64,000 bases of DNA from a virus. The stretch is taken from positions 1 through 64,000 of IMG/VR virus record IMGVR_UViG_3300049929_000026. One strand, given 5' to 3'. Below the pieces are notes generated by a model. That model made no database searches, was not told the DNA's origin, and saw only the letters and a list, made by a program, of their open reading frames with translations. Each line of letters begins with the position of its first letter. The first letter of the stretch is position 1. The position numbers and the translations under genes are program-made. Positions 20,416 through 32,015 of this stretch are shown here, piece by piece.

Positions 20416-22062
20416 ATGGAACAACAGACCGTGTCCGAAGTAGCTCAGGTGTCGCGTGGGAACGCTGAAGACCACGAATATGACCAGTACCTGGCGCGCC
20501 TGCGGCGCCGGTTCGATCTCAACACCATCACCGGTGAGGTCCCCCTCTTCACGACCGATGCGTACAAGCGTCACGACACAACGCTGTGGGACGCCTACCT
20601 GAATTCGTTTCCACCCGAGGAACGCCAATATCACACTTGCTCGGCGTGCCGTCACTTTATCCAGCGCTATGGAACGTTGGTGACCATTGAAGCCGGTCGC
20701 ACGACGCCAGCTATCTGGGACGAAGGCGACGCTCCGGATCTCTACAAGACAGCGGTGGCGGCGATGGCCCGTCTCGTTCGCCGAGCGAAGGTGACTGGCA
20801 TCTTCTTGTCTGAGCAAGTCGAGCTCGGGCAGTCGTCTACCCGCACCGAACGGTGCACGTGGCGCCACTTTGCCGTGACGAACCCGCGCGTCTTCAAACG
20901 GATCACGAAAACGGCCAAGCAGACGCAGGCGGAACGGCGCGAAGACTACAATACTGTATCCAGGTCGCTCTCCGAGATCACACCGGCGACGCTTCAGCAG
21001 GCGGTCACGTTGCTCAAGACCGAGGCGTTGTGGCGCTCGGAGAAGGTGTTGGGAGGCGCTGAGTGGCTGCTGGCAGCCTCGGAAGAGCGGCGTAGCCTAA
21101 CCGGAGCGCTGCGCGACAATGCGCTCTGGCGCGCGATTGCCCTGGCGCCGGCGGGCTTCTGCCACCCGCGGAGCAGCATGATCGGCACCTTGCTCGAGGA
21201 CATTGAGGCGGGTCTCCCGTTCGAAGATGTGCGACGAAAGTTCGCGGCGAAGATGAACCCGACCATCTACCAACGGCCGCAGGCGGCGCCGAGCGCGGGC
21301 AACATCGCGCAGGCCGAGAAACTGGTCGAACAGCTCGGGATCGCTCCGTCACTCAAGCGGCGCTTCGCGCGCCTCGACGACATCCTGGAGAAGCTCTGGG
21401 AGCCGCGACCCGCGCGTGAGGAGACGAAGGCAGCAGGCGGAGTCTTCGGTCACCTGAAGCCGAAGGGGTCAGAACCAGCAGCTGCAATGCGAGTGCCGCC
21501 CGTGGTCATGACCTGGGAGAAGTTCAAACGAACTGTCTTGCCAGAAGCGCGGTCAATTGAGCTTCTCGCGCCGATGCGCGGCAACTACGAGGCTCTCGTG
21601 ACCGCGTCAGACCCGGAGGCGCCGCCGATTCTGCAGTGGGACTCGCCGGAGCGCCGCAACCCCGTTTCCTGGTACGTGTACAGTGGCGGGTCCATCGCTT
21701 CCCAATGGGGGCTGGCCGCTGGCGCTTGGGTCAAGGTGGTCGCGCTGTCCGCGAACCCGCCGCATTGGTTCGGGCGCGAGATGCCGCATCAGGCCGATGG
21801 TGTCCTGTTCGTGCTCGAAGGGTGCCGTGATTCGCGCTGGGCAAGCTCCGGTCTCGGCTTGTTCCCGGAATGCCTAAAGTCAGAGCTCCGGGAGGTGAAG
21901 TCCACAATCGAGGCCTATTCACACCGTGGCCAGCTCGAAGGGTACGAAGAGTCTTCCGCCTGCGGCATCAAGATCAGCAAGGGGCAGGCGAGCGATGTCC
22001 ACGTTCGCGTGTTCGGGGCGAGCGGGGCACCGGTTGAGTACCAGATCGACCGGTGGGACTGA
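20416..22062 (+). CDS. conserved phage protein of unknown function (548 aa)
   Basis: A large soluble protein with a Cys/His group near residue 75 (YHTCSACRHFIQRYG) and a charged helical middle. It also has a C-terminal domain with VMTWEKFKRTVLPEARSIELL and an aromatic-rich part. I know no function for it. It lies between rtcB and a nucleotidyltransferase with TGATG coupling to the latter, so involvement in RNA maintenance is a reasonable hypothesis. Its own promoter-leader and palindromic site lie just upstream. Confidence 0.7.
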   Translation: MEQQTVSEVAQVSRGNAEDHEYDQYLARLRRRFDLNTITGEVPLFTTDAYKRHDTTLWDAYLNSFPPEERQYHTCSACRHFIQRYGTLVTIEAGRTTPAIWDEGDAPDLYKTAVAAMARLVRRAKVTGIFLSEQVELGQSSTRTERCTWRHFAVTNPRVFKRITKTAKQTQAERREDYNTVSRSLSEITPATLQQAVTLLKTEALWRSEKVLGGAEWLLAASEERRSLTGALRDNALWRAIALAPAGFCHPRSSMIGTLLEDIEAGLPFEDVRRKFAAKMNPTIYQRPQAAPSAGNIAQAEKLVEQLGIAPSLKRRFARLDDILEKLWEPRPAREETKAAGGVFGHLKPKGSEPAAAMRVPPVVMTWEKFKRTVLPEARSIELLAPMRGNYEALVTASDPEAPPILQWDSPERRNPVSWYVYSGGSIASQWGLAAGAWVKVVALSANPPHWFGREMPHQADGVLFVLEGCRDSRWASSGLGLFPECLKSELREVKSTIEAYSHRGQLEGYEESSACGIKISKGQASDVHVRVFGASGAPVEYQIDRWD

Positions 22063-23147
22063 TGGTGTTCGACTGGAAGATCTACAACGGAAACCTGCCG
22101 TGGCTGCCGGAGCGCACGATGCTCATGTGTAAGCACGGGAGCAAAGCGTACGGAACTTCTCTGCCCACAAGCGACGACGACTACCGAGGGGTCGCCATTG
22201 CTCCGCGCGAGTACTACTTGGGCGGTCTGAATCGGTTCGAACAAGCGGTGTGCAACGCGCCGGATCTGACCGTCTTCGATCTCCGCAAGTTTGTGGGCCT
22301 CGCCAGCGCAGCGAATCCTAACGTCCTGGAACTACTTTTTGTGGACGACTCGGACCGGCTTCAGGTTTCGAAAGCCGGTGAAAGGCTGCTTGCTATCCGC
22401 GACTCGTTCCTATCGCGCCGGGTGAAACACACGTTTTCTGGATATGCCAGGACGCAAATGAAGCGCATCGATTCCCATTTTCGATGGCTCAGTCATCCGA
22501 TCGAGAACCAGCCGACGCGCGCCGATTTCAAACTGCCGGAGCGCACACTGATCCCGCAGGATCAACTTTCCGCTGCGGAGGCCGGTATTCGGCAAAAGCT
22601 CGACAGCTGGAGCGCGGACTTTCTTGATGACCTTCCGCGCGACGTTCGAGAAGCGATCCTTCAGAAGATGAGTCTGCACCTAGCTGAGCTGCAGGTGTGC
22701 GCTGACGACACGCTGTGGAAAGGCGCGGCGCGCGCCATCGGCTATGAGGAGAATTTCATTCATCTACTCGACATGGAGAAGCGCTACGCCGCTCGAAAGC
22801 GGGACTTCGACAACTACCAGACTTGGAAGAAGAATCGGAACCCTGCGCGGGCGGCGCTCGAAGCGAAGTCGGGCTACGACACCAAGCACGGGATGCACCT
22901 AGTTCGTCTCATGCGAATGTGCCGAGAAATCCTAGAAACAGGGAAGGTGATCGTGCGCCGCCCCGACGCCGAAGAGTTGCTCCAGATCCGCGCGGGCGCG
23001 TGGTCATATGAGAAGCTCCGCGAGTGGGCTGAGCGGGAGGATGCCGCCCAAGAAGAACTGGCCAAGACCAGTCCACTTCCAAAGACGCCAGACTTCGAAG
23101 CCATCGACCGGCTGTGCGTCGACCTGATCTCCGAGGCAATTCGATGA
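22062..23147 (+). CDS. YcgL-like nucleotidyltransferase (polymerase-beta superfamily)
   Basis: 361 aa. HGSKAYGTSLPTSDDDYRGVAIAP carries the GS...D-x-D signature of polymerase-beta-fold nucleotidyltransferases (COG3541/YcgL type). A helical C-terminal domain follows. The start at 22062 overlaps the previous stop (TGATG), and the end overlaps cca (ATGA). Members in phages are often near tRNA or RNA-repair genes; the substrate is unknown, and tRNA-end or protein nucleotidylation are both possible. Confidence 0.8.
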   Translation: MVFDWKIYNGNLPWLPERTMLMCKHGSKAYGTSLPTSDDDYRGVAIAPREYYLGGLNRFEQAVCNAPDLTVFDLRKFVGLASAANPNVLELLFVDDSDRLQVSKAGERLLAIRDSFLSRRVKHTFSGYARTQMKRIDSHFRWLSHPIENQPTRADFKLPERTLIPQDQLSAAEAGIRQKLDSWSADFLDDLPRDVREAILQKMSLHLAELQVCADDTLWKGAARAIGYEENFIHLLDMEKRYAARKRDFDNYQTWKKNRNPARAALEAKSGYDTKHGMHLVRLMRMCREILETGKVIVRRPDAEELLQIRAGAWSYEKLREWAEREDAAQEELAKTSPLPKTPDFEAIDRLCVDLISEAIR

Positions 23148-24490
23148 TCCATCCCCCAGAGAACGTCTTTCAAATTGCCCATCGGTTGCGCAGAGCCGGA
23201 TTTCAGGCCTGGCTGGTCGGTGGCGCCGTTCGCGACAGCATCATGTGCCGCGAGCCCCACGACTGGGACATCGCGACCAATGCCCGTCCTGACGCCGTGG
23301 TGGGGCTATTCGACAGGGTGGTGGAGACCGGCATCAAGCACGGCACGGTGACCGTGATCATCGACGGTGAGCCGTTTGAGGTGACGACGTTCCGCGGTGA
23401 TGGAGCGTACTCGGACGGCCGCCGCCCGGACTCCGTGACGTTCCTCGACACCATCGAGCAGGATCTGGCGCGCCGTGACTTCACGATCAACGCCATCGCT
23501 TACGACCCAATCGCCGGCACGTTCGCCGATCCCTATGCTGGTCGCGAGGACATTGAGGCTAGCCTATTGCGGGCCGTAGGTGACCCGCACGCGCGCTTTC
23601 GCGAGGATGGGCTCCGCATGCTGCGGGCTGCGCGGTTCGCCGCTGTGCTGGGCTTCAGCACCGACCAAGCGACCTGGCAAGCCCTGGGCTCGGAGCTTCA
23701 CATGCTCAATGGGCTGGCGGCGGAGCGCATCCACGACGAATGGGTGAAGGCTTTGGGGTCCGCTAAACCGTCTATGTTTTTCGAGACGCTCCGCGGGACC
23801 GGCATGCTCGCGCCGCTCTGCCCCGAGATCGTGCCGCTGATTGGATGCGAGCAAAACAGGTGGCACGCCTACGACGTCTATTTTCACACCATGAGCGTTC
23901 TCGATCATTCTCCGCCCGACCCCGTCATCCGTCTGGCGGCCGTCTTCCACGATGTGAGCAAGCCCGCCACCAAGGGTATCCACCCGGTGACTGGCGATGT
24001 CACGTTCTACGACCATGAGAATGTCGGCGCCGGCGTGGCTGACGGCATCCTGGAGCGAATGCGCTTTTCCACGGAGCACCGGCAGAAAGCCGTGCACCTG
24101 ATTCGGCACCACCTGATCCCTTATCAGCCCGGGTGGGCTGCGGCGGCCATCCGGCGCTGGGTACGCCGTGTCGGGTCGGGAAACGTCGCGCCGCTCCTGC
24201 AGCTCGCGCGCGCCGACGTTGCCGGCAAGGGCCCGGCAGCCATCGAGATGCGAACCGACGCGCTCGATGAGCTCGAGCGGCGGATCTCGGAGATGGAAAT
24301 CCGCGCGCCCATCGTCACCAGCACCACGGCACTCGCCATCAACGGCGGGGACGTGATGGCCGAGCTCGGTATTGGCCCAGGCAAGCAGGTCGGGGAAGCG
24401 CTCAAGATGCTGCTCGAGTGCGTCACAGAGGCGCCGGAGCTCAACACGCGAGATAGTCTGCTCGCCGTGCTGCGATCGGTGACGCCATGA
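23144..24490 (+). CDS. cca: CCA-adding tRNA nucleotidyltransferase
   Basis: 448 aa class II CCA-adding enzyme, full length. WLVGGAVRDSIM (residue 22) and HDWDIAT (catalytic Asp pair) form the palm; EQDLARRDFTINAIAYDP and RFREDGLRMLRAARFAA are the nucleotide-template region; VFHDVSKP and later His residues form a C-terminal HD-type domain. It would add or repair the 3' CCA of tRNAs. Many tRNAs of the array at 27-32 kb lack an encoded CCA, so the enzyme would be needed to make them functional. Confidence 0.95.
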   Translation: MIHPPENVFQIAHRLRRAGFQAWLVGGAVRDSIMCREPHDWDIATNARPDAVVGLFDRVVETGIKHGTVTVIIDGEPFEVTTFRGDGAYSDGRRPDSVTFLDTIEQDLARRDFTINAIAYDPIAGTFADPYAGREDIEASLLRAVGDPHARFREDGLRMLRAARFAAVLGFSTDQATWQALGSELHMLNGLAAERIHDEWVKALGSAKPSMFFETLRGTGMLAPLCPEIVPLIGCEQNRWHAYDVYFHTMSVLDHSPPDPVIRLAAVFHDVSKPATKGIHPVTGDVTFYDHENVGAGVADGILERMRFSTEHRQKAVHLIRHHLIPYQPGWAAAAIRRWVRRVGSGNVAPLLQLARADVAGKGPAAIEMRTDALDELERRISEMEIRAPIVTSTTALAINGGDVMAELGIGPGKQVGEALKMLLECVTEAPELNTRDSLLAVLRSVTP

Positions 24491-25203: not shown

Positions 25204-25262
25204 AAGAGGCAACAATTCGCAGCCATCACCCGGAGCGAGAAATAAAGCCGCCGCCGCCATGA
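25200..25262 (+). CDS. 20-aa linking ORF
   Basis: ATG overlaps the previous stop and the stop overlaps the next ATG (ATGA on both sides). Encodes a peptide ending PPPP. It may serve only to couple translation to the ATP-grasp gene. Confidence 0.35.
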   Translation: MKEATIRSHHPEREIKPPPP

Positions 25263-26011
25263 GCCCGACCGTCCTTCTCTCCCAGCGCTTCAGCACCGAC
25301 TCCAACGAGGTTTGGAAAGCCGCGGTCAAGCGCGGCTGGAACGTGCATCGAGCCATCCGCTACTTGCCGCCCGATCCGCTGCCAGAGCAGGTGTTCGCGT
25401 ATGGCGAGGTTTCGTTCTGCGACATCATGGCGGAGCGGTGCGGGCTTGGGCTGCTTGACCCGCCCGATCGCTGGCTGGCGGACCTGCCATACGAACTGCT
25501 CAAGCGTGACGTTCTGTTTCTGCAAGCCAGCAACCTGCGCTGGATACGCTGTCGCGCTTTCTTCAAGCCGTCGAATGACAAGGTGTTCTCCGCTGGCGTT
25601 TACGAGCGCGGAGCCGACGTACCGACGAAGTACGTTGATCCGGATTGCCCGTGCCTCGTGTCCGAGGTTGTCGCGTTCGACGTCGAGTACCGGTGCCACG
25701 TGTTGGACGGGGCGGTCACCCGCATGGCCTTCTACCGAATGATCGGTGTCGAGGAGCACGAAGTGGAGGCTGACGCGCGGGCGTTTTCTGAGCGCGTTCT
25801 CGCTGGGCATGCGAGCGAGCTCCCATCGGCTGTGGTGCTCGACATCGGACGCATTGAGGGCCGCGGCTGGGCCGTCGTCGAGGCAAATCAGGCGCACGCC
25901 TCGGGCATCTACGGCGACGCGGATGTCGGGCCCGTGCTGGACTGTGCTCTCCGTTCGGCGGGGCCGATGGCGGCGGTGTCGGATCGGGACCGGCCATTTC
26001 TGAGGGAATAG
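25259..26011 (+). CDS. ATP-grasp family protein (R2K/DUF4343-like)
   Basis: 250 aa. The pattern FFKPSNDKVFSAGV, CLVSEVVAFDVEYRCHVLDG and VVLDIGRI...WAVVEANQAHASGIYG matches ATP-grasp ligases of the R2K clade (formerly DUF4343): a Lys strand, an acidic metal site (E-x-R) and E-x-N near the C terminus. Such enzymes make amide or peptide bonds using ATP and are predicted to tag proteins or nucleic acids. Its place after the RNA-maintenance block suggests a linked role; the substrate is unknown. Confidence 0.7.
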   Translation: MSPTVLLSQRFSTDSNEVWKAAVKRGWNVHRAIRYLPPDPLPEQVFAYGEVSFCDIMAERCGLGLLDPPDRWLADLPYELLKRDVLFLQASNLRWIRCRAFFKPSNDKVFSAGVYERGADVPTKYVDPDCPCLVSEVVAFDVEYRCHVLDGAVTRMAFYRMIGVEEHEVEADARAFSERVLAGHASELPSAVVLDIGRIEGRGWAVVEANQAHASGIYGDADVGPVLDCALRSAGPMAAVSDRDRPFLRE

Positions 26012-26340: not shown

Positions 26341-26350
26341 GGAGACCACC

Positions 26351-26764
26351 ATGCAATACCGAGCAACATTCGAAAAAGTAGGGCGCACGTTCAACGTGAG
26401 TTTTCCGGACTGCCCGGGGTGCCTCACCTTCGGGAAGAGCGAAGCTGAGGCACTCGCGATGGCGCACGAGGCTCTCGAGGGATGGCTTGAGGCCTGCCTG
26501 GTTTCTGGCGTTGTTCCGCCGGCGCCGAAGGCAAAACGCGGCCATGCGATCACGGTCAACCCGCACCTGTCGGCGGTCGTCTTGATTCGTCAGCGCCGTG
26601 CTGCCCTGGGTCTCTCTCAGGCAGAGGTAGCCAAACGCGCGGGCTTGTCGCAGCAGCAGATTGCTCGGCTCGAGAACCCAGACGGGAATCCAACGGTGGC
26701 GACACTGGCTAAGGTCGCTGAAGCGCTTGGGTCCAGGGTCGAGCTGAGCCTGACGGCGGCCTGA
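26351..26764 (+). CDS. hicB: HicB-type antitoxin with HTH domain
   Basis: 137 aa. The N half (YRATFEKVGRTFNVSFPDCPGCLTFGKSEAEAL) is the partly degraded RNase-H-like HicB domain; the C half is a Cro/CI HTH (LGLSQAEVAKRAGLSQQQIARLENPDGNPTVATLAKVAEALG). It binds HicA and represses the operon. AAGGAG lies 7 bases before ATG. Standard hicAB order. Confidence 0.93.
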   Translation: MQYRATFEKVGRTFNVSFPDCPGCLTFGKSEAEALAMAHEALEGWLEACLVSGVVPPAPKAKRGHAITVNPHLSAVVLIRQRRAALGLSQAEVAKRAGLSQQQIARLENPDGNPTVATLAKVAEALGSRVELSLTAA

Positions 26765-26767
26765 GCT

Positions 26768-27106
26768 GTGGCCATAAGCAAGACGGTTCGACCCGTCTCA
26801 CCGGGTGAGGTACTCCGTGAGCAGCTCGAAGAGCTCGGCATGTCGGCAAACGCGCTGGCGGCCGCGCTGCACGTGCCAACGAATCGAATCACCGGCATCC
26901 TGAACGCGACGCGCGCGCTCACGCCGGAGACAGCGCTGCGGCTCGAGCGGTACTTCGCGGGCACCACCGCGCAGTTCTGGCTCAACATGCAAACCAGCTT
27001 CGACCTGCGCCGTGCAGAGCTCAAGATCGGCACTGCGCTCCGCGAAATTTGTCCGCTGAGGCGTTTAACGGTCCGACCTGAAACAAAAGAAAAAAGCCCC
27101 CGATAG
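26768..27106 (+). CDS. HigA-family antitoxin-like HTH protein, no partner toxin
   Basis: 112 aa, GTG start 3 bases after hicB. VSPGEVLREQLEELGMSANALAAALHVPTNRITGILNATRALTPETALRLERYFAGTTAQFWLNMQ is the complete HigA/VapI HTH domain. No higB toxin lies beside it, so it is an orphan antitoxin or third regulator of the locus. Its last codons overlap the terminator of the opposing tRNA array. Confidence 0.85.
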   Translation: MAISKTVRPVSPGEVLREQLEELGMSANALAAALHVPTNRITGILNATRALTPETALRLERYFAGTTAQFWLNMQTSFDLRRAELKIGTALREICPLRRLTVRPETKEKSPR

Positions 27107-27126
27107 CGGTGAGGCTACCAGGGGCT
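27095..27126 (-). terminator. rho-independent terminator of the tRNA array
   Basis: On the minus strand AGCCCC...GGGGGCT forms a stem with an inner GTAGC/GCTAT extension, followed immediately by TTTTTTCTTTTG. It is oriented to end the minus-strand tRNA transcript. Confidence 0.8.
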
Positions 27127-27253
27127 CGGCATTGTCACCACGTCTTGAGGAAAGTTGCCGGTGTTCCCGGTCGTTCCTCTCGACCACGACCTTTCGGCGG
27201 TGGCTGCCCAACCGGTTTACCGGCCAATGCGAGGGGCTTATTGAAGCTAGCAG
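27127..27253. other. structured spacer between terminator and last tRNA
   Basis: No gene seen. On the minus strand it holds GGTCGT/ACGACC and GAGGAA/TTCCTC hairpin arms. It may be an RNA domain at the 3' end of the tRNA transcript. Confidence 0.3.
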
Positions 27254-27322
27254 AGCCGGCGAAGAGGATCGAACTCTTTTCGAGTGCAGTACGAAAGCAC
27301 GCGCCTTCCAAAGGGCACCGGC
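27254..27322 (-). tRNA. tRNA-Thr(CGU)
   Basis: Acceptor GCCGGTG/CGCCGGC, T arm AAGAG-TTCGATC-CTCTT, anticodon loop TTCGTAC. The D arm is shortened. No CCA encoded (ends TCTG). Decodes ACG. Confidence 0.75.
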
Positions 27323-27328
27323 GTCGGC

Positions 27329-27409
27329 GGGAAGAGGACGAGTCGAACGTCTCACCGAAGTGCCAACCGGGTAGCAACCGGCGGCGCGCCCACGCGCGCT
27401 TCACTTTCC
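27329..27409 (-). tRNA. tRNA-Ser(GCU), degenerate acceptor
   Basis: Anticodon arm GCCGG-TTGCTAC-CCGGT and a long variable arm CAC-TTCG-GTG mark a class II serine tRNA. The acceptor GGAAAGT/CTCTTCC has mismatches; ends are approximate. Confidence 0.55.
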
Positions 27410-27413
27410 GTAG

Positions 27414-27496
27414 CGGAAGACCGAGTACTCGAAACCCACGGTGTTACCCGCACACTGCTTTCGAAACAGGTTCAGCGCCTTGCTGATTGATCTTCC
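27414..27496 (-). tRNA. tRNA-Ser(CGA)
   Basis: Acceptor GGAAGAT/GTCTTCC, discriminator G, anticodon loop TTCGAAA, variable arm GTG/CAC. Class II. No CCA encoded. Confidence 0.8.
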
Positions 27497-27501
27497 AATG
27501 G

Positions 27502-27580
27502 CCGAGAGTTGTGGAATCGAACCACCATCCGTGGATGTGCCAGTTTTCAAGGCTGGTTTGCCGCCATCGCCAAACCCTCG
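27502..27580 (-). tRNA. tRNA-Ser(UGA)
   Basis: Acceptor CGAGGGT/ACTCTCG, discriminator G followed by encoded CCA. Anticodon loop CTTGAAA; variable arm CATCC/GGATG. The 5' end could be one or two bases longer. Confidence 0.75.
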
Positions 27581-27581
27581 G

Positions 27582-27662
27582 CGGAGAGCGACGTACTCGA
27601 AACGCAGGCCGTAGCCCCATCCGCTTTCCAAGCGGCGCCCGCGCCCCGCGGGTTCACTCTCC
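27582..27662 (-). tRNA. tRNA-Ser(GGA)
   Basis: Acceptor GGAGAGT/GCTCTCC, discriminator G, anticodon arm GCCGC-TTGGAAA-GCGGA, class II variable arm. Fourth of four adjacent serine tRNAs. Confidence 0.8.
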
Positions 27663-27670
27663 AAAGTAGC

Positions 27671-28186
27671 TCACGCTAGGTCGCGCACGAAGCTCAACCA
27701 TTCCTCGGGTGCATTGCTCACGTCGATGCGCGGCCCGACGTGCGGCAGCGAACGCGGCGCAACCGGATCGCGTATTGGAAACATGCCGGCCTCGTCGCAA
27801 CTCTTGTTGGCCTTGCGCGAATTGCAGCTGCGGCACGCGCTGGCGATGTTCGACCACTCGGTGCGACCGCCAGCGGACCTAGGCACGACGTGGTCGTAAG
27901 TCAGATCACGCTCCGCGAACTTGTTGCCGCAATACTGGCAGCGGTACCCGTCTCGTGTGTAGACGTTCGCGCGTGAAAAGCGCACCCCGCGCTGGGCACG
28001 CTTCGGCAAGTGCTTGAGGCGCATCACCGCAGGCACATTCCAGGTCACCGAGGGCGAGGAGATTTCGTCCTCATACTCGACCACCACTTCGGCGTTGCCC
28101 TCGTAGCGGAGCTTCACCGCATCCTGCCAGTGCAGGATGCGTATCGGTACGTACCAAGGTGAGAGCAAGAGCGTTCGCGTGTGCAT
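27671..28186 (-). CDS. HNH endonuclease inside the tRNA array
   Basis: 171 aa. The C-terminal domain is a canonical HNH: RFSRANVYTRDGYRCQYCG, LTYDHVVPRSAGGRTEWSNIASACRSCNSRKANK. The N-terminal 70 residues are typical of bacterial HNH proteins (WYVPIRILHWQDAVKLRYEG). It splits the serine tRNA group from the leucine tRNA group and is probably a homing nuclease carried by the array. Confidence 0.9.
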   Translation of the reverse strand: MHTRTLLLSPWYVPIRILHWQDAVKLRYEGNAEVVVEYEDEISSPSVTWNVPAVMRLKHLPKRAQRGVRFSRANVYTRDGYRCQYCGNKFAERDLTYDHVVPRSAGGRTEWSNIASACRSCNSRKANKSCDEAGMFPIRDPVAPRSLPHVGPRIDVSNAPEEWLSFVRDLA

Positions 28187-28210
28187 GGTCGTCCCTCGTT
28201 GCTGTTGTTG

Positions 28211-28296
28211 TGCTCACTGCGCGAGTCGAACGCGCACGGGGCTCGCGCCCCGACGGTTTTTGAGACCGTTGTGTATACCAATTCCACCAAGTGAGC
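28211..28296 (-). tRNA. tRNA-Leu(CAA)
   Basis: Acceptor GCTCACT/AGTGAGC, discriminator A, anticodon arm ACGGT-CTCAAAA-ACCGT, long variable arm CGGGGC/GCCCCG, T loop TTCGACT. Full cloverleaf. Confidence 0.93.
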
Positions 28297-28300
28297 ATGG

Positions 28301-28384
28301 TCCCGACGAACGGATTTGAACCGATAAGAGTTGCCTCACACCCTTCTCAGGAGTGCGCGTTTGCCAGATTTTCGCCACGTCGGG
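28301..28384 (-). tRNA. tRNA-Leu(GAG)
   Basis: Acceptor CCCGACG/CGTCGGG, discriminator A, CCA encoded. Anticodon loop CTGAGAA; class II variable arm; T loop TTCAAAT. Confidence 0.9.
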
Positions 28385-28419
28385 GTTGGTCCCAGATTGA
28401 GGCTCCGGGCTGGCCTTGG

Positions 28420-28502
28420 TGCACACGGATGGATTTGAACCAACACGAGGTTTCCCCCGGCGCGTTCTAAGCGCGCTGCGGCTGCCGTTTCGCCACGTGT
28501 GC
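28420..28502 (-). tRNA. tRNA-Leu(UAG)
   Basis: Acceptor GCACACG/CGTGTGC, A plus CCA encoded. Anticodon arm GCGCG-CTTAGAA-CGCGC, class II variable arm. Confidence 0.92.
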
Positions 28503-28506
28503 ATAG

Positions 28507-28578
28507 TACGGGAACAGGGGATCGAACCCTGCTCTTCGGCGTGTCACACCGACGTAGAAACCACTCTACTATTCCCGT
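28507..28578 (-). tRNA. tRNA-Val(GAC)
   Basis: Acceptor ACGGGAA/TTCCCGT, discriminator A, no CCA. D stem GTAG/CTAC, anticodon arm TCGGT-GTGACAC-GCCGA, T arm CAGGG-TTCGATC-CCCTG. Confidence 0.88.
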
Positions 28579-28585
28579 GTCGTGG

Positions 28586-28656
28586 TGGAGCTACCGCGAG
28601 TTGAGCGCGGCCAAGATCGATATCAGCGATCTCCGGTCACCGGACCATCTAGCTCC
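28586..28656 (-). tRNA. tRNA-Ile(GAU)
   Basis: Acceptor GGAGCTA/TAGCTCC, A plus CCA encoded. Anticodon arm GATCG-CTGATAT-CGATC, T arm CCGCG-CTCAACT-CGCGG. Confidence 0.9.
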
Positions 28657-28666
28657 GTTGTCTTTG

Positions 28667-28735
28667 TGCGCCGCCCGGGTGCTGGCCCCGACGTGCCGTG
28701 TTTATAAGACTCGGCTGCTCACCGGAGCTCGGCGC
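28667..28735 (-). tRNA. tRNA-Ile(UAU), unusual
   Basis: Acceptor GCGCCG/CGGCGC, discriminator A, short D arm GCTC-CGGT-GAGC, anticodon loop CTTATAA (UAU, reads AUA), T arm TCGGG-GCCAGCA-CCCGG with a non-canonical loop. No CCA. A borderline cloverleaf. Confidence 0.55.
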
Positions 28736-28739
28736 ATGG

Positions 28740-28821
28740 TGTCCGCTCCCGGCTTCGAACCGGGATGCCTTTCGGCGGCCGGGTTTAGACCGGCTGTGTA
28801 TGCCTATTCCACCAAGCGGAC
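28740..28821 (-). tRNA. tRNA-Leu(UAA) with C33
   Basis: Acceptor GTCCGCT/AGCGGAC, A plus CCA encoded, class II variable arm. Anticodon arm GCCGG-TCTAAAC-CCGGC places C at position 33 instead of the near-universal U. Confidence 0.88.
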
Positions 28822-28825
28822 ATGG

Positions 28826-28897
28826 TACGGGGCAAGAGGATCGAACTCTTCTCGCTGGGGTGTAGACCCAGAGCCGTCACCAGACGGCGAGCCCCGC
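28826..28897 (-). tRNA. tRNA-Val(UAC) with C33
   Basis: Acceptor GCGGGGC/GCCCCGT, A plus CCA encoded, D stem GCCG/CGGC. Anticodon arm CTGGG-TCTACAC-CCCAG again has C33. Confidence 0.88.
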
Positions 28898-28902
28898 GCG
28901 GG

Positions 28903-28976
28903 TTCTGGGCCAGCGACTCGAACGCTGCTCTTCCAAGTTCAAAGCTTGGTTATCCTGGCCAGTAGACGATCCCAGA
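28903..28976 (-). tRNA. tRNA-Gln(UUG)
   Basis: Acceptor TCTGGGA/GCCCAGA (one mismatch), discriminator A. Anticodon arm CCAAG-CTTTGAA-CTTGG, T arm CAGCG-TTCGAGT-CGCTG. Ends CCC rather than CCA. Confidence 0.9.
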
Positions 28977-28977
28977 G

Positions 28978-29046
28978 TGGTGACACGTGGACTCGAACCA
29001 CAGCCGCCGGCCTTATGAGAGCCGCGTCGCTCCTTGCGTTGTCACC
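28978..29046 (-). tRNA. tRNA with CAU anticodon (elongator Met or Ile2)
   Basis: Acceptor GGTGACA/TGTCACC with a G1-C72 pair, so not an initiator. Anticodon arm CGGCT-CTCATAA-GGCCG. If lysidine-modified it would read AUA instead of AUG. Confidence 0.85.
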
Positions 29047-29047
29047 G

Positions 29048-29122
29048 TAGCGTGGCCACGAATTGAACGTGGTATCTCCGAGGTTATGAGCCTGGCGGGC
29101 TAGTCCGTCGCCCTCCACACGC
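29048..29122 (-). tRNA. tRNA with CAU anticodon, possible initiator
   Basis: Anticodon loop CTCATAA, T arm CCACG-TTCAATT-CGTGG, discriminator A. The acceptor GCGTG/CACGC leaves an unpaired first position, a feature of initiator tRNA. Exact ends uncertain. Confidence 0.65.
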
Positions 29123-29124
29123 AG

Positions 29125-29193
29125 CGCTCCCGTGGTGAATCGAACACCATAGTCAGCCTTCGGAGGGCCGACGCGAAACCCGTTCGCGAGAGC
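29125..29193 (-). tRNA. tRNA-Arg(CCG)
   Basis: Acceptor GCTCTCG/CGGGAGC, discriminator G, no CCA. Anticodon arm CGGCC-CTCCGAA-GGCTG, T arm TGGTG-TTCGATT-CACCA. Confidence 0.85.
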
Positions 29194-29199
29194 AAATGG

Positions 29200-29270
29200 A
29201 GTCTCCGGAAGGAGTCGAGCCTTCGCAGTCAGCGTTCGTAGCGCCGATGTCCAAATCCCTGGACGGAGAC
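29200..29270 (-). tRNA. tRNA-Arg(ACG)
   Basis: Acceptor GTCTCCG/CGGAGAC, discriminator T plus CCA encoded. Anticodon arm CGGCG-CTACGAA-CGCTG; A34 would need deamination to inosine by TadA. Confidence 0.88.
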
Positions 29271-29274
29271 ATGG

Positions 29275-29346
29275 CACCCCACTGCGGTATCGATCCGCAT
29301 CCTCGACGCTGAGAACGTCGCGACCTAGCCAGTAGTCGAGTGGGGC
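29275..29346 (-). tRNA. tRNA-Glu(CUC)
   Basis: Acceptor GCCCCAC/GTGGGGT, G plus CCA encoded. Anticodon arm CGACG-TTCTCAG-CGTCG, T arm TGCGG-ATCGATA-CCGCA. Confidence 0.9.
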
Positions 29347-29350
29347 GTGG

Positions 29351-29418
29351 CGCTTTCGTAGGTGATCGAAACCTACACCGCGAGCTTAGAAGGCTCAGGG
29401 CCATCCATTGGCGAAAGC
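29351..29418 (-). tRNA. tRNA-Arg(UCU)
   Basis: Acceptor GCTTTCG/CGAAAGC, G plus CCA encoded. Anticodon arm TGAGC-CTTCTAA-GCTCG, T arm TAGGT-TTCGATC-ACCTA. Short D arm. Confidence 0.87.
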
Positions 29419-29423
29419 GTTGG

Positions 29424-29491
29424 AGACGCGCCCCGCAATCGAAGCGGGCACCGCTGGGTTGCAATCAGCGTTCGCACCTTGCGTGCGCGTC
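29424..29491 (-). tRNA. tRNA-Cys(GCA)
   Basis: Acceptor GACGCGC/GCGCGTC, discriminator T (Cys identity) plus CCA encoded. Anticodon loop TTGCAAC, T arm CCCGC-TTCGATT-GCGGG. Confidence 0.9.
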
Positions 29492-29591
29492 ATCACTGGG
29501 CCGTGGACACTTTATCCTATGAGCCACGCTCACCCTCAACGTCGAAGGCTGCTGCGACCCACTCGGGCGTTACTCCGAGACCATAGCCCCG
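29492..29591. other. 100-nt spacer without a recognisable tRNA
   Basis: Minus-strand sequence can pair CTATG/CATAG and CTCGG/CCGAG, but no anticodon loop with U33 or TTCRA T loop could be fitted. Perhaps a decayed tRNA gene. Confidence 0.3.
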
Positions 29592-29663
29592 AGCGAGCAG
29601 TGGGAATCGGACCCACCTATGAAAACTTGGCAGATTTCCGCCGCACCTTGCGGCCTTGCTCGC
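29592..29663 (-). tRNA. tRNA-Gly(GCC)
   Basis: Acceptor GCGAGCA/TGCTCGC, discriminator T (Gly identity). Anticodon arm GAAAT-CTGCCAA-GTTTT, T arm GTGGG-TCCGATT-CCCAC. No CCA. Confidence 0.9.
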
Positions 29664-29668
29664 GTAGC

Positions 29669-29727
29669 GTCGCGCGCGTGTCGCCCGACTTGCTGTCTAA
29701 GCAGCGTTTCAGGCTAGGGCGCGCGAC
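29669..29727 (-). other. 59-nt tRNA-like mini-structure
   Basis: Ends pair over 8 bp (GTCGCGCG/CGCGCGAC) as an acceptor-like stem. Inside are GCTG-CTTAGA-CAGC and GTCG-GG-CGAC arms. Too short for a tRNA and lacks a TTCRA loop. Confidence 0.4.
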
Positions 29728-29730
29728 TAG

Positions 29731-29800
29731 AGCGGGCACCGAGTTTCGAACTCGGCAGGCACGGCTTGGAAGGCCGGCTTCTCGCCAAGAGAATGCCCGC
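29731..29800 (-). tRNA. tRNA-Gly(UCC)
   Basis: Acceptor GCGGGCA/TGCCCGC, discriminator T. Anticodon loop CTTCCAA, T arm CCGAG-TTCGAAA-CTCGG. No CCA. Confidence 0.9.
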
Positions 29801-29854
29801 GTTGATGGCCGCCGCTACTCGCACCGCCGAAGCAGGTGCTTTCACGGCTGCCGG

Positions 29855-29923
29855 AGCTGGTCGAGGGAGTCGGACCCTCTCGCAATCCATACCAAGGATT
29901 GTTGCCTCCGAGGACTGACCAGC
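29855..29923 (-). tRNA. tRNA-Thr(GGU)
   Basis: Acceptor GCTGGTC/GACCAGC, discriminator T. Anticodon arm AATCC-TTGGTAT-GGATT, T arm GAGGG-TCCGACT-CCCTC. Confidence 0.88.
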
Positions 29924-29928
29924 ATTTG

Positions 29929-29999
29929 TGGAGATGTTCGGTAATGCTCCGAATCGGATTGCTTGCAAGGCAAACCAGCAGCCTTCTGCGTCCATCCCC
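29929..29999 (-). tRNA. tRNA-Ala(UGC) with variant T loop
   Basis: Acceptor GGGGATG/CATCTCC contains the G3-U70 pair that identifies alanine tRNA; discriminator A. Anticodon loop CTTGCAA. T stem TTCGG/CCGAA encloses AGCATTA instead of TTCRANN. No CCA. Confidence 0.78.
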
Positions 30000-30007
30000 A
30001 ATCGTAG

Positions 30008-30076
30008 CGGGGTGCCGGCGAATCGAACGCCGTCCTGCTGATTTGGAATCATCTTGGCCACCATGGCCTGCGCCCC
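30008..30076 (-). tRNA. tRNA-Trp(CCA)
   Basis: Acceptor GGGGCGC/GCACCCC (one mismatch), discriminator G (Trp identity). Anticodon loop TTCCAAA, T arm CGGCG-TTCGATT-CGCCG. Confidence 0.8.
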
Positions 30077-30116
30077 GTGCGCCCTGTCTTCGCCGTAGCT
30101 TGGACAAGACTTGCCT

Positions 30117-30173
30117 CATGCGTGTTCGCGGTCGTTTGCAACCGTTGCCGCAGCTCCGACGAGCCCACACATG
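30117..30173 (-). other. 57-nt tRNA-like mini-structure
   Basis: Ends CATGTGT/ACGCATG pair like an acceptor; next comes GCTC-GTCG-GAGC, a D-arm-like hairpin, and one further arm CGGTT/GACCG. Lacks separate anticodon and T arms. Confidence 0.35.
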
Positions 30174-30180
30174 CGACCAG

Positions 30181-30254
30181 CGTCTCGTAGGGGTAACGCT
30201 CCCCTTTCGTCATAGCGTGACAAGCTACCGGCGATACTTATCGCCTCACGAGGC
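30181..30254 (-). tRNA. tRNA-Asp(GUC) with variant T loop
   Basis: Acceptor GCCTCGT/ACGAGAC (one mismatch), discriminator G (Asp identity), D stem GGCG/CGCC, anticodon loop TTGTCAC. T arm AGGGG-AGCGTTA-CCCCT has the same AGCRTTA loop as tRNA-Ala. Confidence 0.78.
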
Positions 30255-30256
30255 AT

Positions 30257-30355
30257 TGCGAAAGCGCCTGTGCCCATACCCGCAGCGCACACCTTGCGGT
30301 GATAATTGCCGAGCACAGATCTTTTCATCACGGACGGCTTCACGTGAACTTTCGC
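30257..30355 (-). ncRNA. 99-nt structured element of unknown type
   Basis: Ends GCGAAAG/CTTTCGC pair over 7 bp. Inside: CACG/CGTG hairpin, CTGTGC/GCACAG stem and CACC-GCAA-GGTG with a GNRA tetraloop. Acceptor-like ends with discriminator A, but no anticodon loop found. Could be an undescribed RNA or an unusual class II tRNA. Confidence 0.4.
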
Positions 30356-30357
30356 GG

Positions 30358-30427
30358 CGCTCTCGGAAGGGGTCGAGCCTTCGTAACTCGGTTTAGGAAA
30401 CCGTGCACCGGATCCGCCGGCGAGAGC
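30358..30427 (-). tRNA. tRNA-Arg(CCU)
   Basis: Acceptor GCTCTCG/CGAGAGC, discriminator G. Anticodon loop TTCCTAA, T arm GAAGG-CTCGACC-CCTTC. Confidence 0.88.
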
Positions 30428-30432
30428 ATTGG

Positions 30433-30500
30433 GGTGCAGCGCGGGATCGAACCGCTCGACTCGGGTCACAGCCGAATCTGTTTACCAAAACTACCGCACC
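30433..30500 (-). tRNA. tRNA-His(GUG)
   Basis: The extra G-1 opposite C73 (histidine identity) is encoded, then GTGCGGT/GCTGCAC and encoded CCA. Anticodon loop CTGTGAC. Confidence 0.92.
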
Positions 30501-30507
30501 ATCGTGG

Positions 30508-30580
30508 TCAGGTCGGTCGGGCACGATCCGACAATCTCTCCGCCCCAAACGGAGTGCCTTACCAATTAGGCTACGACCTG
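30508..30580 (-). tRNA. tRNA-Pro(UGG)
   Basis: Acceptor CAGGTCG/CGACCTG, A plus CCA encoded. D stem GCCT/AGGC, anticodon arm CTCCG-TTTGGGG-CGGAG, T arm GTCGG-ATCGTGC-CCGAC. Confidence 0.9.
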
Positions 30581-30584
30581 ATGG

Positions 30585-30657
30585 TCCCTCGAACTCGAGT
30601 CGAACGAGTCTCTTTCGCTCTTCAGGCGAACGCTGTCACCGGGTCAGCTGTCGAGGG
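30585..30657 (-). tRNA. tRNA-Phe(GAA)
   Basis: Acceptor CCCTCGA/TCGAGGG, A plus CCA encoded. D stem GCTG/CAGC, anticodon arm TTCGC-CTGAAGA-GCGAA, T arm ACTCG-TTCGACT-CGAGT. Confidence 0.93.
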
Positions 30658-30662
30658 ATTGG

Positions 30663-30734
30663 TGAGGCGTGCGGGTTTCGCGCCCGCTAGACTTCGGATG
30701 AAAGCCGAAGCACCGAACTATCAGAATACGCCCC
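30663..30734 (-). tRNA. tRNA-Glu(UUC)
   Basis: Acceptor GGGGCGT/ACGCCTC, A plus CCA encoded. Anticodon arm TTCGG-CTTTCAT-CCGAA, T arm GCGGG-CGCGAAA-CCCGC. Confidence 0.87.
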
Positions 30735-30773
30735 GTGAGCAGACTACTTCTTTCCTCGGTCTGCCAGCGATAG

Positions 30774-30842
30774 AGCCCACTGACGAAATCGAATCGTCCT
30801 GGCGACAGTACAAAAGTCGCTGGTCGCCTTGACCGAGCGGGC
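30774..30842 (-). tRNA. tRNA-Thr(UGU)
   Basis: Acceptor GCCCGCT/AGTGGGC, discriminator T. Anticodon loop TTTGTAC closed by a T-T mismatch, as in tRNA-Thr(CGU). T arm GACGA-TTCGATT-TCGTC. No CCA. Confidence 0.82.
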
Positions 30843-30847
30843 ATCAG

Positions 30848-30921
30848 CTGTGGGGGCAGGAATCGAACCCGCGGGAGGCGCATTAACAGTGCGCCCAATG
30901 TGCCAGCACATAAGCCCCACA
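30848..30921 (-). tRNA. tRNA-Asn(GUU)
   Basis: Acceptor TGTGGGG/CCCCACA, discriminator G (Asn identity). Anticodon arm GCGCA-CTGTTAA-TGCGC. Confidence 0.9.
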
Positions 30922-30924
30922 ATA

Positions 30925-30947
30925 GGAGGCGATTGGTCGTCGCCTCC
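30925..30947 (-). other. 8-bp hairpin 5' of tRNA-Asn
   Basis: GGAGGCGA-7 nt-TCGCCTCC, perfect stem, no U tract. The following 97 nt up to tRNA-Gln hold another CGCGC-AGTGAA-GCGCG hairpin and no gene. Possibly a processing signal. Confidence 0.4.
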
Positions 30948-31044
30948 GCGTACAGCGAGAGCCCGCCACGCGCTTCACTGCGCGCCGGCATGTCGCTTTT
31001 GGATTGTGAAAGATCAGAGAACGACTAGTTGCCGTTCGCCGTGG

Positions 31045-31115
31045 TTGGGAAGGAAGGATTCGAACCTTCGTTGACGAGTTCAGAGCTCATCGTCCTGCCT
31101 CTAGACGACTTCCCA
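31045..31115 (-). tRNA. tRNA-Gln(CUG)
   Basis: Acceptor TGGGAAG/CTTCCCA, A plus CCA encoded. Anticodon arm ATGAG-CTCTGAA-CTCGT, T arm GAAGG-TTCGAAT-CCTTC. Confidence 0.93.
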
Positions 31116-31373
31116 GCATTGTTTTTGCCGCCGTACGTCGGCGTTTGCGAATGACAGTTGGGACACAGCATCCGGAGATTCTCCGGCCTATGATCGAATT
31201 TTTTCCCGTTCTTGTGATCGAGATGCAGCGATAGCTTCTTGCCGAGCCATTCGTTGATTCCACGCGCCGCAACTGACGTGCAAACCGAGGCGGTTTGCTA
31301 CTTCAGCGAATCCGCAACTCTCGCGAACTGCCACCGCCAATTGTTCGTCAGAATATGATCTCGGTCGTGCCAT
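31116..31373 (-). pseudogene. broken HNH endonuclease
   Basis: The first 38 residues (MARPRSYSDEQLAVAVRESC...) match the N terminus of small phage HNH proteins. About 60 expected residues, including the first Cys pair, are missing, and the C-terminal part (NEWLGKKLSLHLDHKNGKK..., PENLRMLCPNCHSQTPTYGG) continues in another frame. This is an internal deletion with frameshift. It abuts tRNA-Gln(CUG), into which the C-terminal frame runs on. Confidence 0.85.
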
Positions 31374-31381
31374 TTCCAGAG

Positions 31382-31452
31382 TGCGCCAGCAGGGAATCGG
31401 ACCCTGTCCTACCGGGTAAGAGCCGGTTGCTCGACCAATGAGCTACAAGCGC
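31382..31452 (-). tRNA. tRNA-Lys(CUU)
   Basis: Acceptor GCGCTTG/CTGGCGC, discriminator A, D stem GCTC/GAGC, anticodon arm ACCGG-CTCTTAC-CCGGT, T arm CAGGG-TCCGATT-CCCTG. Confidence 0.9.
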
Positions 31453-31453
31453 G

Positions 31454-31467
31454 TGGTCAAGTGACCA
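31454..31467. promoter_or_regulatory. palindromic operator-like site, copy 5
   Basis: TGGTCAAGTGACCA, the only copy in which both six-base half-sites are fully complementary. Lies between the two lysine tRNA genes, directly 5' of tRNA-Lys(CUU). Confidence 0.55.
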
Positions 31468-31470
31468 CAG

Positions 31471-31542
31471 TGAGTCTGGCGGGATTTGAACCCGCGCCGC
31501 ATGGATTAAAAGTCCAGCATGCCGCCACAACACTTCAGACCC
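31471..31542 (-). tRNA. tRNA-Lys(UUU)
   Basis: Acceptor GGGTCTG/CAGACTC, discriminator A. Anticodon arm CTGGA-CTTTTAA-TCCAT, T arm GCGGG-TTCAAAT-CCCGC. No CCA. Confidence 0.9.
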
Positions 31543-31602
31543 GCAGTTAGCGAGTCGAGCGTTTAGGTAGCGATGTCCTTTCTTGATTCATGAGTTACCT
31601 GG

Positions 31603-31684
31603 TGGGTCGCCTTGGTGTTGATCCAAGCTAGCCAATGGCACCTGATTTACAGTCAGGCCTGCGTCCCGGCGCAGCACACGACCC
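31603..31684 (-). tRNA. tRNA-Tyr(GUA)
   Basis: Acceptor GGGTCGT/GCGACCC, A plus CCA encoded. Anticodon arm CCTGA-CTGTAAA-TCAGG, class II variable arm GCC/GGC, T arm CTTGG-ATCAACA-CCAAG. First tRNA of the array. Confidence 0.93.
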
Positions 31685-31693
31685 AGAAACGAG

Positions 31694-31719
31694 AAAAGGC
31701 GCCGCGGTTTCCCGGGCGC
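31694..31719 (-). terminator. hairpin with short U tract upstream of the tRNA array
   Basis: Minus strand AAGGCGCC-loop-GGCGCCTT followed by TTCTCG. Could separate the late operon from the tRNA transcript or act as an attenuator. Confidence 0.5.
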
Positions 31720-31749
31720 CTTCACTGAAACCAGTGGAAAAACGCCCGT

Positions 31750-31908
31750 TTAACTTGTACCTGGCTCCTGCGAAATGGTTGCGAATTGCGCATAGCTCGG
31801 CTTTGAATCGCTTTCGCGATTCCAGCACGTGGCTAGGTGGAGAGCTATGCGTGTCATGGCTTGTTGAAGGTGAACCTGTGCGCGCCGATTGTCCAGAACT
31901 AAATGCAT
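31750..31908 (-). CDS. possible small ORF (52 aa)
   Basis: Begins MHLVLDNRRAQVHLQQAMTR; includes a strong DNA hairpin GAATCGC-GAAA-GCGATTC (31801-31818). No clear RBS. The stretch may rather be the leader or promoter region of the tRNA array. Confidence 0.2.
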   Translation of the reverse strand: MHLVLDNRRAQVHLQQAMTRIALHLATCWNRESDSKPSYAQFATISQEPGTS

Positions 31909-31945
31909 CGTGTCAGTACGAAAGTTTGCTGGGTGCCAATGGCTG

Positions 31946-31977
31946 AAAGCGCCGACCCCTTTCGGAGCCGGCGCTTT
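31946..31977. terminator. bidirectional hairpin terminator candidate
   Basis: AAAGCGCCG and CGGCGCTTT form a 9-bp stem flanked by A and T runs on the two sides, between the stop of the gene at 32016 and the tRNA region. Confidence 0.55.
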
Positions 31978-32015
31978 CTCGTTGTTGATGCGGGCGGCGT
32001 ACCGCACGCAGAGTT

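What the first reader, a model, noticed from the sequence alone, without database searches (positions are those of the whole stretch)
27254..31684. Array of about 38 tRNA genes covering all 20 amino acids
I folded 38 cloverleaves by eye on the minus strand: Ala 1, Arg 4, Asn 1, Asp 1, Cys 1, Gln 2, Glu 2, Gly 2, His 1, Ile 2, Leu 4, Lys 2, CAU 2, Phe 1, Pro 1, Ser 4, Thr 3, Trp 1, Tyr 1, Val 2. Identity features support many calls: G3-U70 in Ala, G-1/C73 in His, U73 in Cys and Gly, long variable arms in Ser, Leu and Tyr. A near self-sufficient tRNA set suggests the phage replaces host tRNAs degraded during infection or by defence nucleases.
Basis: partly seen in the sequence, partly recalled or inferred. 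Interest (0 to 1): 0.88.

Follow-up and report, generated by a model that had tools for sequence, protein, structure and literature searches.

The report
Phage array of 38 tRNA genes
A bacterial virus carries 38 real tRNA genes in one block, enough to read all 61 amino-acid codons, beside its own tRNA-repair enzymes; it most likely keeps protein synthesis running when the host destroys its own tRNAs, and it belongs to a family of such blocks that keep the same gene order in otherwise unrelated viruses.

Summary
Default ARAGORN finds 26 tRNA genes; a cloverleaf scan that does not demand a normal D arm finds exactly 38 on the minus strand at 27,255-31,684, and 37 of them score above anything in the background of the 137.6-kb phage record. 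All 20 amino acids are covered, and under standard wobble rules all 61 sense codons. Stems pair at 93-97% and discriminator bases fit the isotype in 37 of 38, so these look like working tRNAs, although a third have shortened D regions. Nearby lie RtcB tRNA ligase, RlaP and a CCA-adding enzyme; 22 of the 38 genes lack an encoded CCA. Dedicated tRNAs for codons the phage hardly uses (UUA, AUA, AGA) speak against codon compensation and for whole-pool replacement or repair. tRNA-rich phages with repair enzymes are a known kind. What I did not find described is that this array's order is shared (z up to 10) with arrays in phages lacking its terminase and sheath genes, with one HNH endonuclease at the same place after tRNA-Leu(CAA). 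It is best read as a member of an old, HNH-linked tRNA island. Function is inferred, not shown.

The parts
27255..31684 (-). tRNA array, 38 genes, 8.6 per kb, spacers mostly 0-11 nt
31685..32014 (-). conserved leader upstream of the array (likely promoter region), 89% identical in near relative G009 where most aligned DNA is 82-83%
   Evidence: weak sigma-70-like match 31916-31888, no more than chance
27087..27127 (-). intrinsic terminator-like hairpin (14 pairs) and T run at the 3' end of the array
31604..31684 (-). tRNA-Tyr(GUA)
31472..31542 (-). tRNA-Lys(UUU)
31383..31452 (-). tRNA-Lys(CUU)
31046..31115 (-). tRNA-Gln(CUG)
30849..30921 (-). tRNA-Asn(GUU)
30775..30842 (-). tRNA-Thr(UGU), short D region
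30664..30734 (-). tRNA-Glu(UUC)
30586..30657 (-). tRNA-Phe(GAA)
30509..30580 (-). tRNA-Pro(UGG)
30433..30500 (-). tRNA-His(GUG), G-1 opposite C73, short D region
30359..30427 (-). tRNA-Arg(CCU), short D region
30182..30254 (-). tRNA-Asp(GUC)
30009..30076 (-). tRNA-Trp(CCA), short D region
29930..29999 (-). tRNA-Ala(UGC), G3-U70
29856..29923 (-). tRNA-Thr(GGU), short D region
29732..29800 (-). tRNA-Gly(UCC), U73, short D region
29593..29663 (-). tRNA-Gly(GCC), U73
29425..29491 (-). tRNA-Cys(GCA), U73, short D region
29352..29418 (-). tRNA-Arg(UCU), shortest D region (14 nt)
29276..29346 (-). tRNA-Glu(CUC)
29201..29270 (-). tRNA-Arg(ACG), short D region, atypical U73
29126..29193 (-). tRNA-Arg(CCG), short D region
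29049..29121 (-). tRNA CAU, likely initiator (1:72 mismatch)
28979..29046 (-). tRNA CAU, likely elongator Met, short D region
28904..28976 (-). tRNA-Gln(UUG)
28827..28897 (-). tRNA-Val(UAC)
28741..28821 (-). tRNA-Leu(UAA)
28668..28735 (-). tRNA-Ile(UAU), weakest call of the 38
28587..28656 (-). tRNA-Ile(GAU)
28508..28578 (-). tRNA-Val(GAC)
28421..28502 (-). tRNA-Leu(UAG)
28302..28384 (-). tRNA-Leu(GAG)
   Evidence: my scanner misplaced its anticodon loop
28212..28296 (-). tRNA-Leu(CAA), directly 5' of the HNH gene
27671..28186 (-). HNH endonuclease gene inside the array, co-oriented; found at the same place in related arrays
27583..27662 (-). tRNA-Ser(GGA)
27503..27580 (-). tRNA-Ser(UGA)
27415..27496 (-). 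tRNA-Ser(CGA)
27329..27409 (-). tRNA-Ser(GCU), two acceptor mismatches
27255..27328 (-). tRNA-Thr(CGU)
31116..31380 (-). frameshifted remnant of a second, different HNH gene
   Evidence: reading of the three frames
31453..31468 (.). perfect copy of the 16-bp palindrome GTGGTCANNTGACCAC between the two tRNA-Lys genes
19048..20283 (+). RtcB tRNA ligase, catalytic Cys and His motifs kept
20416..22062 (+). phrog_1735 protein, function unknown
22062..23147 (+). RlaP-type nucleotidyltransferase of RNA repair
23144..24490 (+). CCA-adding tRNA nucleotidyltransferase
25259..26011 (+). R2K-clade ATP-grasp protein

Best explanation
The array is a transcription unit running from a conserved leader (about 32.0 kb) to a terminator (27.1 kb) on the minus strand. 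Its 38 tRNAs would be cut out by host RNases; the 22 without encoded CCA would be finished by a CCA-adding enzyme, of which the phage has its own. During infection the set would supply a complete decoding pool, so phage translation continues when host tRNAs are cleaved or trimmed, chiefly by antiphage tRNA nucleases. RtcB, RlaP and the CCA enzyme would repair cut tRNAs. By descent it is one of a family of tRNA islands that keep their order in unrelated phages and carry one HNH endonuclease, which may help the island spread. Shown: the genes, their fit to tRNA identity rules, codon coverage, neighbours, order conservation. Inferred: expression, charging, defence escape, HNH-driven spread.
For: 38 cloverleaves above background; isotype-specific discriminator bases; all 61 codons covered, including rare UUA 1.3, AGA 1.7 and AUA 2.0 per 1000; intact RtcB, RlaP and CCA genes within about 8 kb; leader kept at 89% and terminator-like hairpin. 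Family: common order of 18-21 anticodons with L081, L075, L072 and G010, z 9-10, against z -1.9 to 1.2 for five unrelated phage arrays; HNH after Leu(CAA) in 11 arrays; 20 of the 24 closest HNH relatives lie in arrays, 766 of 767 tRNAs on the HNH strand; HNH identity tracks order (rho 0.63, p 0.0025); our TerL and sheath absent from all 13 array records, TerL control 5 of 5.
Against: No expression or rescue data. 12-13 tRNAs have short D regions (32% against 0-14% in four other arrays), so some may charge or fold poorly; Ile(UAU) is weak. The host is unknown, so host codon use and host tRNA nucleases cannot be compared. The RtcB and CCA genes are on the other strand and are not found within about 7 kb of the related arrays. 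Same-anticodon tRNAs of G010 are no more like ours than those of unrelated arrays, so shared descent rests on order and HNH. In near relative G009 the array start is broken by another HNH gene.
Confidence: 0.6

Rival explanations
1. Codon compensation: the tRNAs supply codons that the phage uses more than its host.
For: 62% of phage codons have an exact Watson-Crick tRNA; it is the classical explanation for few-tRNA phages.
Against: The set is complete rather than selective, with dedicated tRNAs for codons used 1-3 times per 1000, and only U34 tRNAs for the commonest Ala and Pro codons GCG and CCG.
Confidence: 0.12
2. Replacement after self-inflicted loss: the phage itself, or general host shut-off, destroys host tRNAs and the array refills the pool; defence nucleases are not the main driver.
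For: A complete set is what general loss would demand; many phage genes have no known function.
Against: No tRNA-cutting enzyme was recognised among the genes scanned; ligation and RlaP repair point to endonucleolytic damage, which repair would undo.
Confidence: 0.17
3. Selfish island: the HNH endonuclease spreads the array by homing and the tRNAs are mostly passengers.
For: Same HNH family in the same place in 11 arrays, co-oriented; HNH remnants and replacements at the array start; T4 SegB is a published precedent (cited in PMC6409571).
Against: Passengers should decay, yet stems and discriminator bases are kept in nearly all 38.
Confidence: 0.1
4. Most of the divergent cloverleaves are decaying pseudogenes and only about 26 work.
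For: ARAGORN default 26, Rfam gathering 7; short D regions; weak Ile(UAU).
Against: All 38 keep GG in the D region, 35 of 38 U33, discriminator fit 37 of 38; the 12 extra genes fill the isotypes otherwise missing: Ala, Arg, Asp and Cys.
Confidence: 0.1

Closest known systems
tRNA gene clusters of phages (Morgado and Vicente 2019, PMC6409571): 15-37 tRNAs, eight with all 20 isotypes
   Same: dense single-strand array, all 20 isotypes, large tailed phage
   Different: 38 genes; covers every sense codon; integrase present, which that survey found in only 23 of 226 such phages
tRNA array units of Mycobacterium, its phages and plasmids (PMC5966550, PMC12803027)
   Same: conserved isotype order across different replicons, HNH homing endonuclease as the most widespread embedded gene, proposed antidefence role
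   Different: the order-sharing relatives found here are metagenomic phages without this phage's TerL or sheath, plus Rctr197k; whether the mycobacterial HNH is the same family was not tested
Microbacterium phage Cece, OP068343
   Same: over 40 tRNAs covering all 20 amino acids, RtcB, RNA ligase, peptidyl-tRNA hydrolase nearby
   Different: no shared gene order (z 0.0); 56 codons covered
Virus Rctr197k, KX853510
   Same: 41 tRNAs, same HNH (43% identity) after tRNA-Leu(CAA), partly shared order (z 3.7)
   Different: lacks Tyr and Ile-AUA; split in two blocks; no match to our TerL, sheath or RlaP
RNA-repair sets of jumbo phages (PMC7824862)
   Same: RtcB, RlaP and CCA-adding enzyme together with phage tRNAs
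   Different: 137.6-kb record, smaller than a jumbo phage; no Thg1, PTH or polynucleotide kinase recognised among the proteins scanned

Membership tests
Phage tRNA gene cluster / tRNA array unit | at least 15-20 tRNA genes at 2 or more per kb | tested here: met
   38 genes, 8.6 per kb
Phage tRNA gene cluster / tRNA array unit | genes keep tRNA structure and identity elements | tested here: met
   Ile(UAU) and short D regions are exceptions
Phage tRNA gene cluster / tRNA array unit | tRNAs are made and charged in infected cells | not testable with these tools
   no expression data
HNH-linked, order-conserved array family (proposed here) | tRNA order shared beyond chance with other members | tested here: met
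   z 7.6-10 to L081, L075, L072, G010, L082; controls -1.9 to 1.2
HNH-linked, order-conserved array family (proposed here) | HNH of the same family directly 3' of tRNA-Leu(CAA) | tested here: met
   ours and ten others
HNH-linked, order-conserved array family (proposed here) | HNH homing activity moves the array | not testable with these tools
   only position, orientation and co-divergence seen
Antidefence tRNA supply (as T5/SP15 tRNA-Tyr against retron-Eco7) | phage tRNA restores growth on a host with a tRNA-cutting defence | not testable with these tools
   needs a host and assay; precedent PMC11555353
Phage RNA repair set | RtcB with its catalytic Cys and His residues | tested here: met
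   alignment to 1uc2 keeps the motifs
Phage RNA repair set | CCA-adding enzyme with DxD and RRDFTINA motifs | tested here: met
tRNA-dependent lysogeny (PMC10865867) | tyrosine integrase beside attP plus a phage tRNA of the disrupted isotype | tested here: inconclusive
   integrase and full tRNA-Leu(GAG) 39 bp apart; no host attB found

The most novel reading that the evidence does not exclude
The arrays are one ancient, HNH-propelled mobile island, a portable decoding kit, that has passed between unrelated phages across hosts. Its gene order stays while the tRNA sequences have drifted to saturation, and in this phage it has become complete for all 61 sense codons.
Probability: 0.35. Interest if true: 0.75.

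Novelty: new member of a known kind. Interest (0 to 1): 0.52.

Why it matters
Why phages carry tRNAs has been argued for decades. A set that can read every sense codon, sitting near its own tRNA ligase, nucleotide-restoring enzyme and CCA-adding enzyme, is a clean test case for the idea that phages replace or repair the whole tRNA pool. The shared order with arrays in unrelated phages, and one HNH gene kept at the same spot, makes a concrete question testable: whether tRNA arrays are assembled gene by gene or move as islands.

Tried and rejected
Rfam and default ARAGORN alone would have undercounted (7 and 26). ARAGORN at 80% and 70% thresholds floods with false hits, so I wrote a scanner with a background. 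Close relatives of the array by DNA: none. Protein searches with the CCA enzyme and the phrog_1735 protein found no relatives in viral contigs. Prophage search in GTDB genomes with the portal protein, and with a 35-nt tRNA-Leu att candidate: nothing, so the host is unknown. phrog_1735 as an RtcB partner: adjacent to RtcB in two Rhizobium phages, but beside ribonucleotide reductase or unrelated genes in others; dropped. D-armless, mitochondria-like tRNAs: rejected, because all 38 keep GG in the D region and most a short D stem. Recent transfer between G010 and this phage: rejected, tRNA sequences are saturated. The first Mantel test had a wrong ORF for L075 and was redone. The HNH is not specific to tRNA arrays: related copies lie in ordinary loci of Rhizobium and Tsukamurella plasmids and some phages. 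PADLOC showed no convincing defence gene among ten proteins.
Full report
What is there. The window is bases 1-64,000 of a 137,618-bp linear phage record. The phage has a contractile-tail plan: sheath, baseplate J, portal, TerL, DnaB and a tyrosine integrase. ARAGORN finds 26 tRNA genes at 27,253-31,684, all minus strand; Rfam accepts 7 with its fast filters. Relaxed and mitochondrial ARAGORN modes raise this to the mid-thirties. A scanner that scores acceptor, anticodon and T arms and treats the D arm as a bonus returns exactly 38 in the interval; 37 score above the best background hit on both strands of the rest of the record, leaving out one further real tRNA-Leu. Shuffled array DNA gives 0.025 hits at the level of the weakest gene.

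Are they real tRNAs? Acceptor stems are 96.6% paired, T stems 96.8%, anticodon stems 92.6%; U33 is kept in 35, GG in the D region in all 38. The discriminator base fits the isotype in 37 of 38, against 19 expected by permutation and at most 30 in 100,000 permutations. Ala has G3-U70, His has G-1/C73, Cys and Gly have U73, all Ser have G73, all Leu A73, and one CAU tRNA has the 1:72 mismatch of initiators. Twelve or thirteen have a short D region (14-17 nt), 32% of the set against 0-14% in four other phage arrays. Ile(UAU) is the weakest. Sixteen encode CCA, 22 do not.

What they can read. With U34 reading only A and G the set covers 57 codons; if U34 reads all four in the Ala and Pro boxes it covers all 61. 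Among 27 arrays compared the next best is 60, then 56-57; arrays taken from viral contigs may be cut by the flank, so theirs are lower bounds. The phage has dedicated tRNAs for its rarest codons: UUA 1.3, AGA 1.7, AUA 2.0, AGG 3.3 per 1000. A set chosen to top up favoured codons would not look like this.

Surroundings. On the opposite strand, starting about 3 kb from the array, lie a CCA-adding enzyme, RlaP, a phrog_1735 protein of unknown function and RtcB, with an R2K ATP-grasp gene between them and the array. RtcB keeps its catalytic motifs against 1uc2, and the CCA enzyme its class II motifs. A HicA-HicB pair and a HigA-like antitoxin lie between that operon and the array. Downstream of the last tRNA is a 14-pair terminator-like hairpin with a T run. 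Upstream, a roughly 340-bp leader is 89% identical in the near relative G009, where most aligned DNA is 82-83%.

Relatives. The RlaP search led to G010, a 297.7-kb contig whose array shares 20 anticodons in the same order (random 8.7 +/- 1.2, none of 20,000 shuffles). The two phages share no structural genes that tblastn can see. Both arrays, and that of Virus Rctr197k, carry the same HNH gene directly after tRNA-Leu(CAA). Searching viral contigs with an alignment of the three HNH proteins returned 80 loci. Of the 24 closest, 20 lie inside arrays of at least 10 tRNAs, and 766 of 767 tRNAs in all 80 loci are on the HNH strand. Order similarity to ours reaches z 10.0 (L081), 9.5 (L075), 9.1 (L072), 8.9 (G010) and 7.6 (L082). 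Arrays of RpAliso, Cece, CcrColossus, Vibrio phage D181 and Ps15 give 1.0, 0.0, -1.8, -1.9 and 1.2, so order is not simply constrained in all arrays. HNH identity tracks order similarity (rho 0.63, p 0.0025, 14 arrays). TerL and sheath of our phage are absent from all 13 array records searched, while the TerL search finds 5 of 5 known relatives. The tRNA sequences themselves no longer show the relationship, so the shared ancestry is old. A Nostoc plasmid has the same HNH family directly upstream of a 22-tRNA array of different order. The HNH also occurs away from tRNAs in bacteria and some phages.

How it most likely works. The array supplies a full decoding pool during infection, and RtcB, RlaP and CCA addition repair tRNAs that have been cut in the anticodon loop or trimmed at the tail. 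Published work makes this plausible: phage tRNA-Tyr rescues T5-like phages from retron-Eco7 (PMC11555353), phage tRNAs carry anticodon-loop changes predicted to resist tRNA nucleases (PMC10264068), Cas12a3 removes tRNA CCA tails (PMC12851939), and RtcB, RlaP and CCA enzymes have been proposed as phage countermeasures (PMC7824862). None of it has been shown for this phage. Destruction of host tRNA by the phage itself remains a serious alternative. The HNH may act as a homing endonuclease, as T4 SegB does for T4 tRNA genes (cited in PMC6409571), and so keep the island moving.

Is it new? Phage tRNA clusters with all 20 isotypes, HNH genes inside arrays, and order-defined array groups shared between replicons are published (PMC6409571, PMC5966550). 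Phage Cece and Virus Rctr197k have more tRNAs. What I did not find described is a set complete for all sense codons, and the wide order-sharing, HNH-linked family outside mycobacteria; the paper searches were limited to an open-access library. I file it as a new member of a known kind.

Noticed in passing
whole 137.6-kb record; window 3230, 7319, 15524, 20295, 31453: A 16-bp palindrome GTGGTCANNTGACCAC occurs 26 times with at most 2 mismatches (about 0.4 expected), mostly between genes or at gene ends, one copy inside the tRNA array. It looks like a dispersed operator (stoperator-like) of a temperate phage.
   Followed up: partly
window 4178-7314: Ribose-phosphate diphosphokinase-like gene next to a nicotinamide phosphoribosyltransferase gene: resembles an NAD+ reconstitution pair against NAD-depleting defences. 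The second gene carries an intein-like insert (about residues 386-656) absent from G010's copy.
   Followed up: partly
record 123945-125237 (outside the window): A complete tRNA-Leu(GAG) lies 39 bp from a tyrosine integrase gene: candidate attachment site or tRNA-dependent lysogeny.
   Followed up: partly
window 26158-27106: HicA toxin, HicB-HTH antitoxin and a HigA-like antitoxin directly beside the array.
   Followed up: no
G009 (IMGVR_UViG_3300025898_000013) 47115-47610: In a near relative tRNA-Tyr is broken after 10 nt and a different HNH gene sits between two copies of the palindrome; the contig ends before the rest of the array.
   Followed up: partly
L155 (NZ_CP040298), HNH at 6001-6435: Nostoc plasmid with the same HNH family directly upstream of a 22-tRNA array in a different order.
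   Followed up: partly
window 20416-22062: phrog_1735 protein of unknown function beside RtcB here and in two Rhizobium phages, but beside other genes elsewhere.
   Followed up: partly
window 235-1755: 506-aa protein with a weak PADLOC match to mad3.
   Followed up: no
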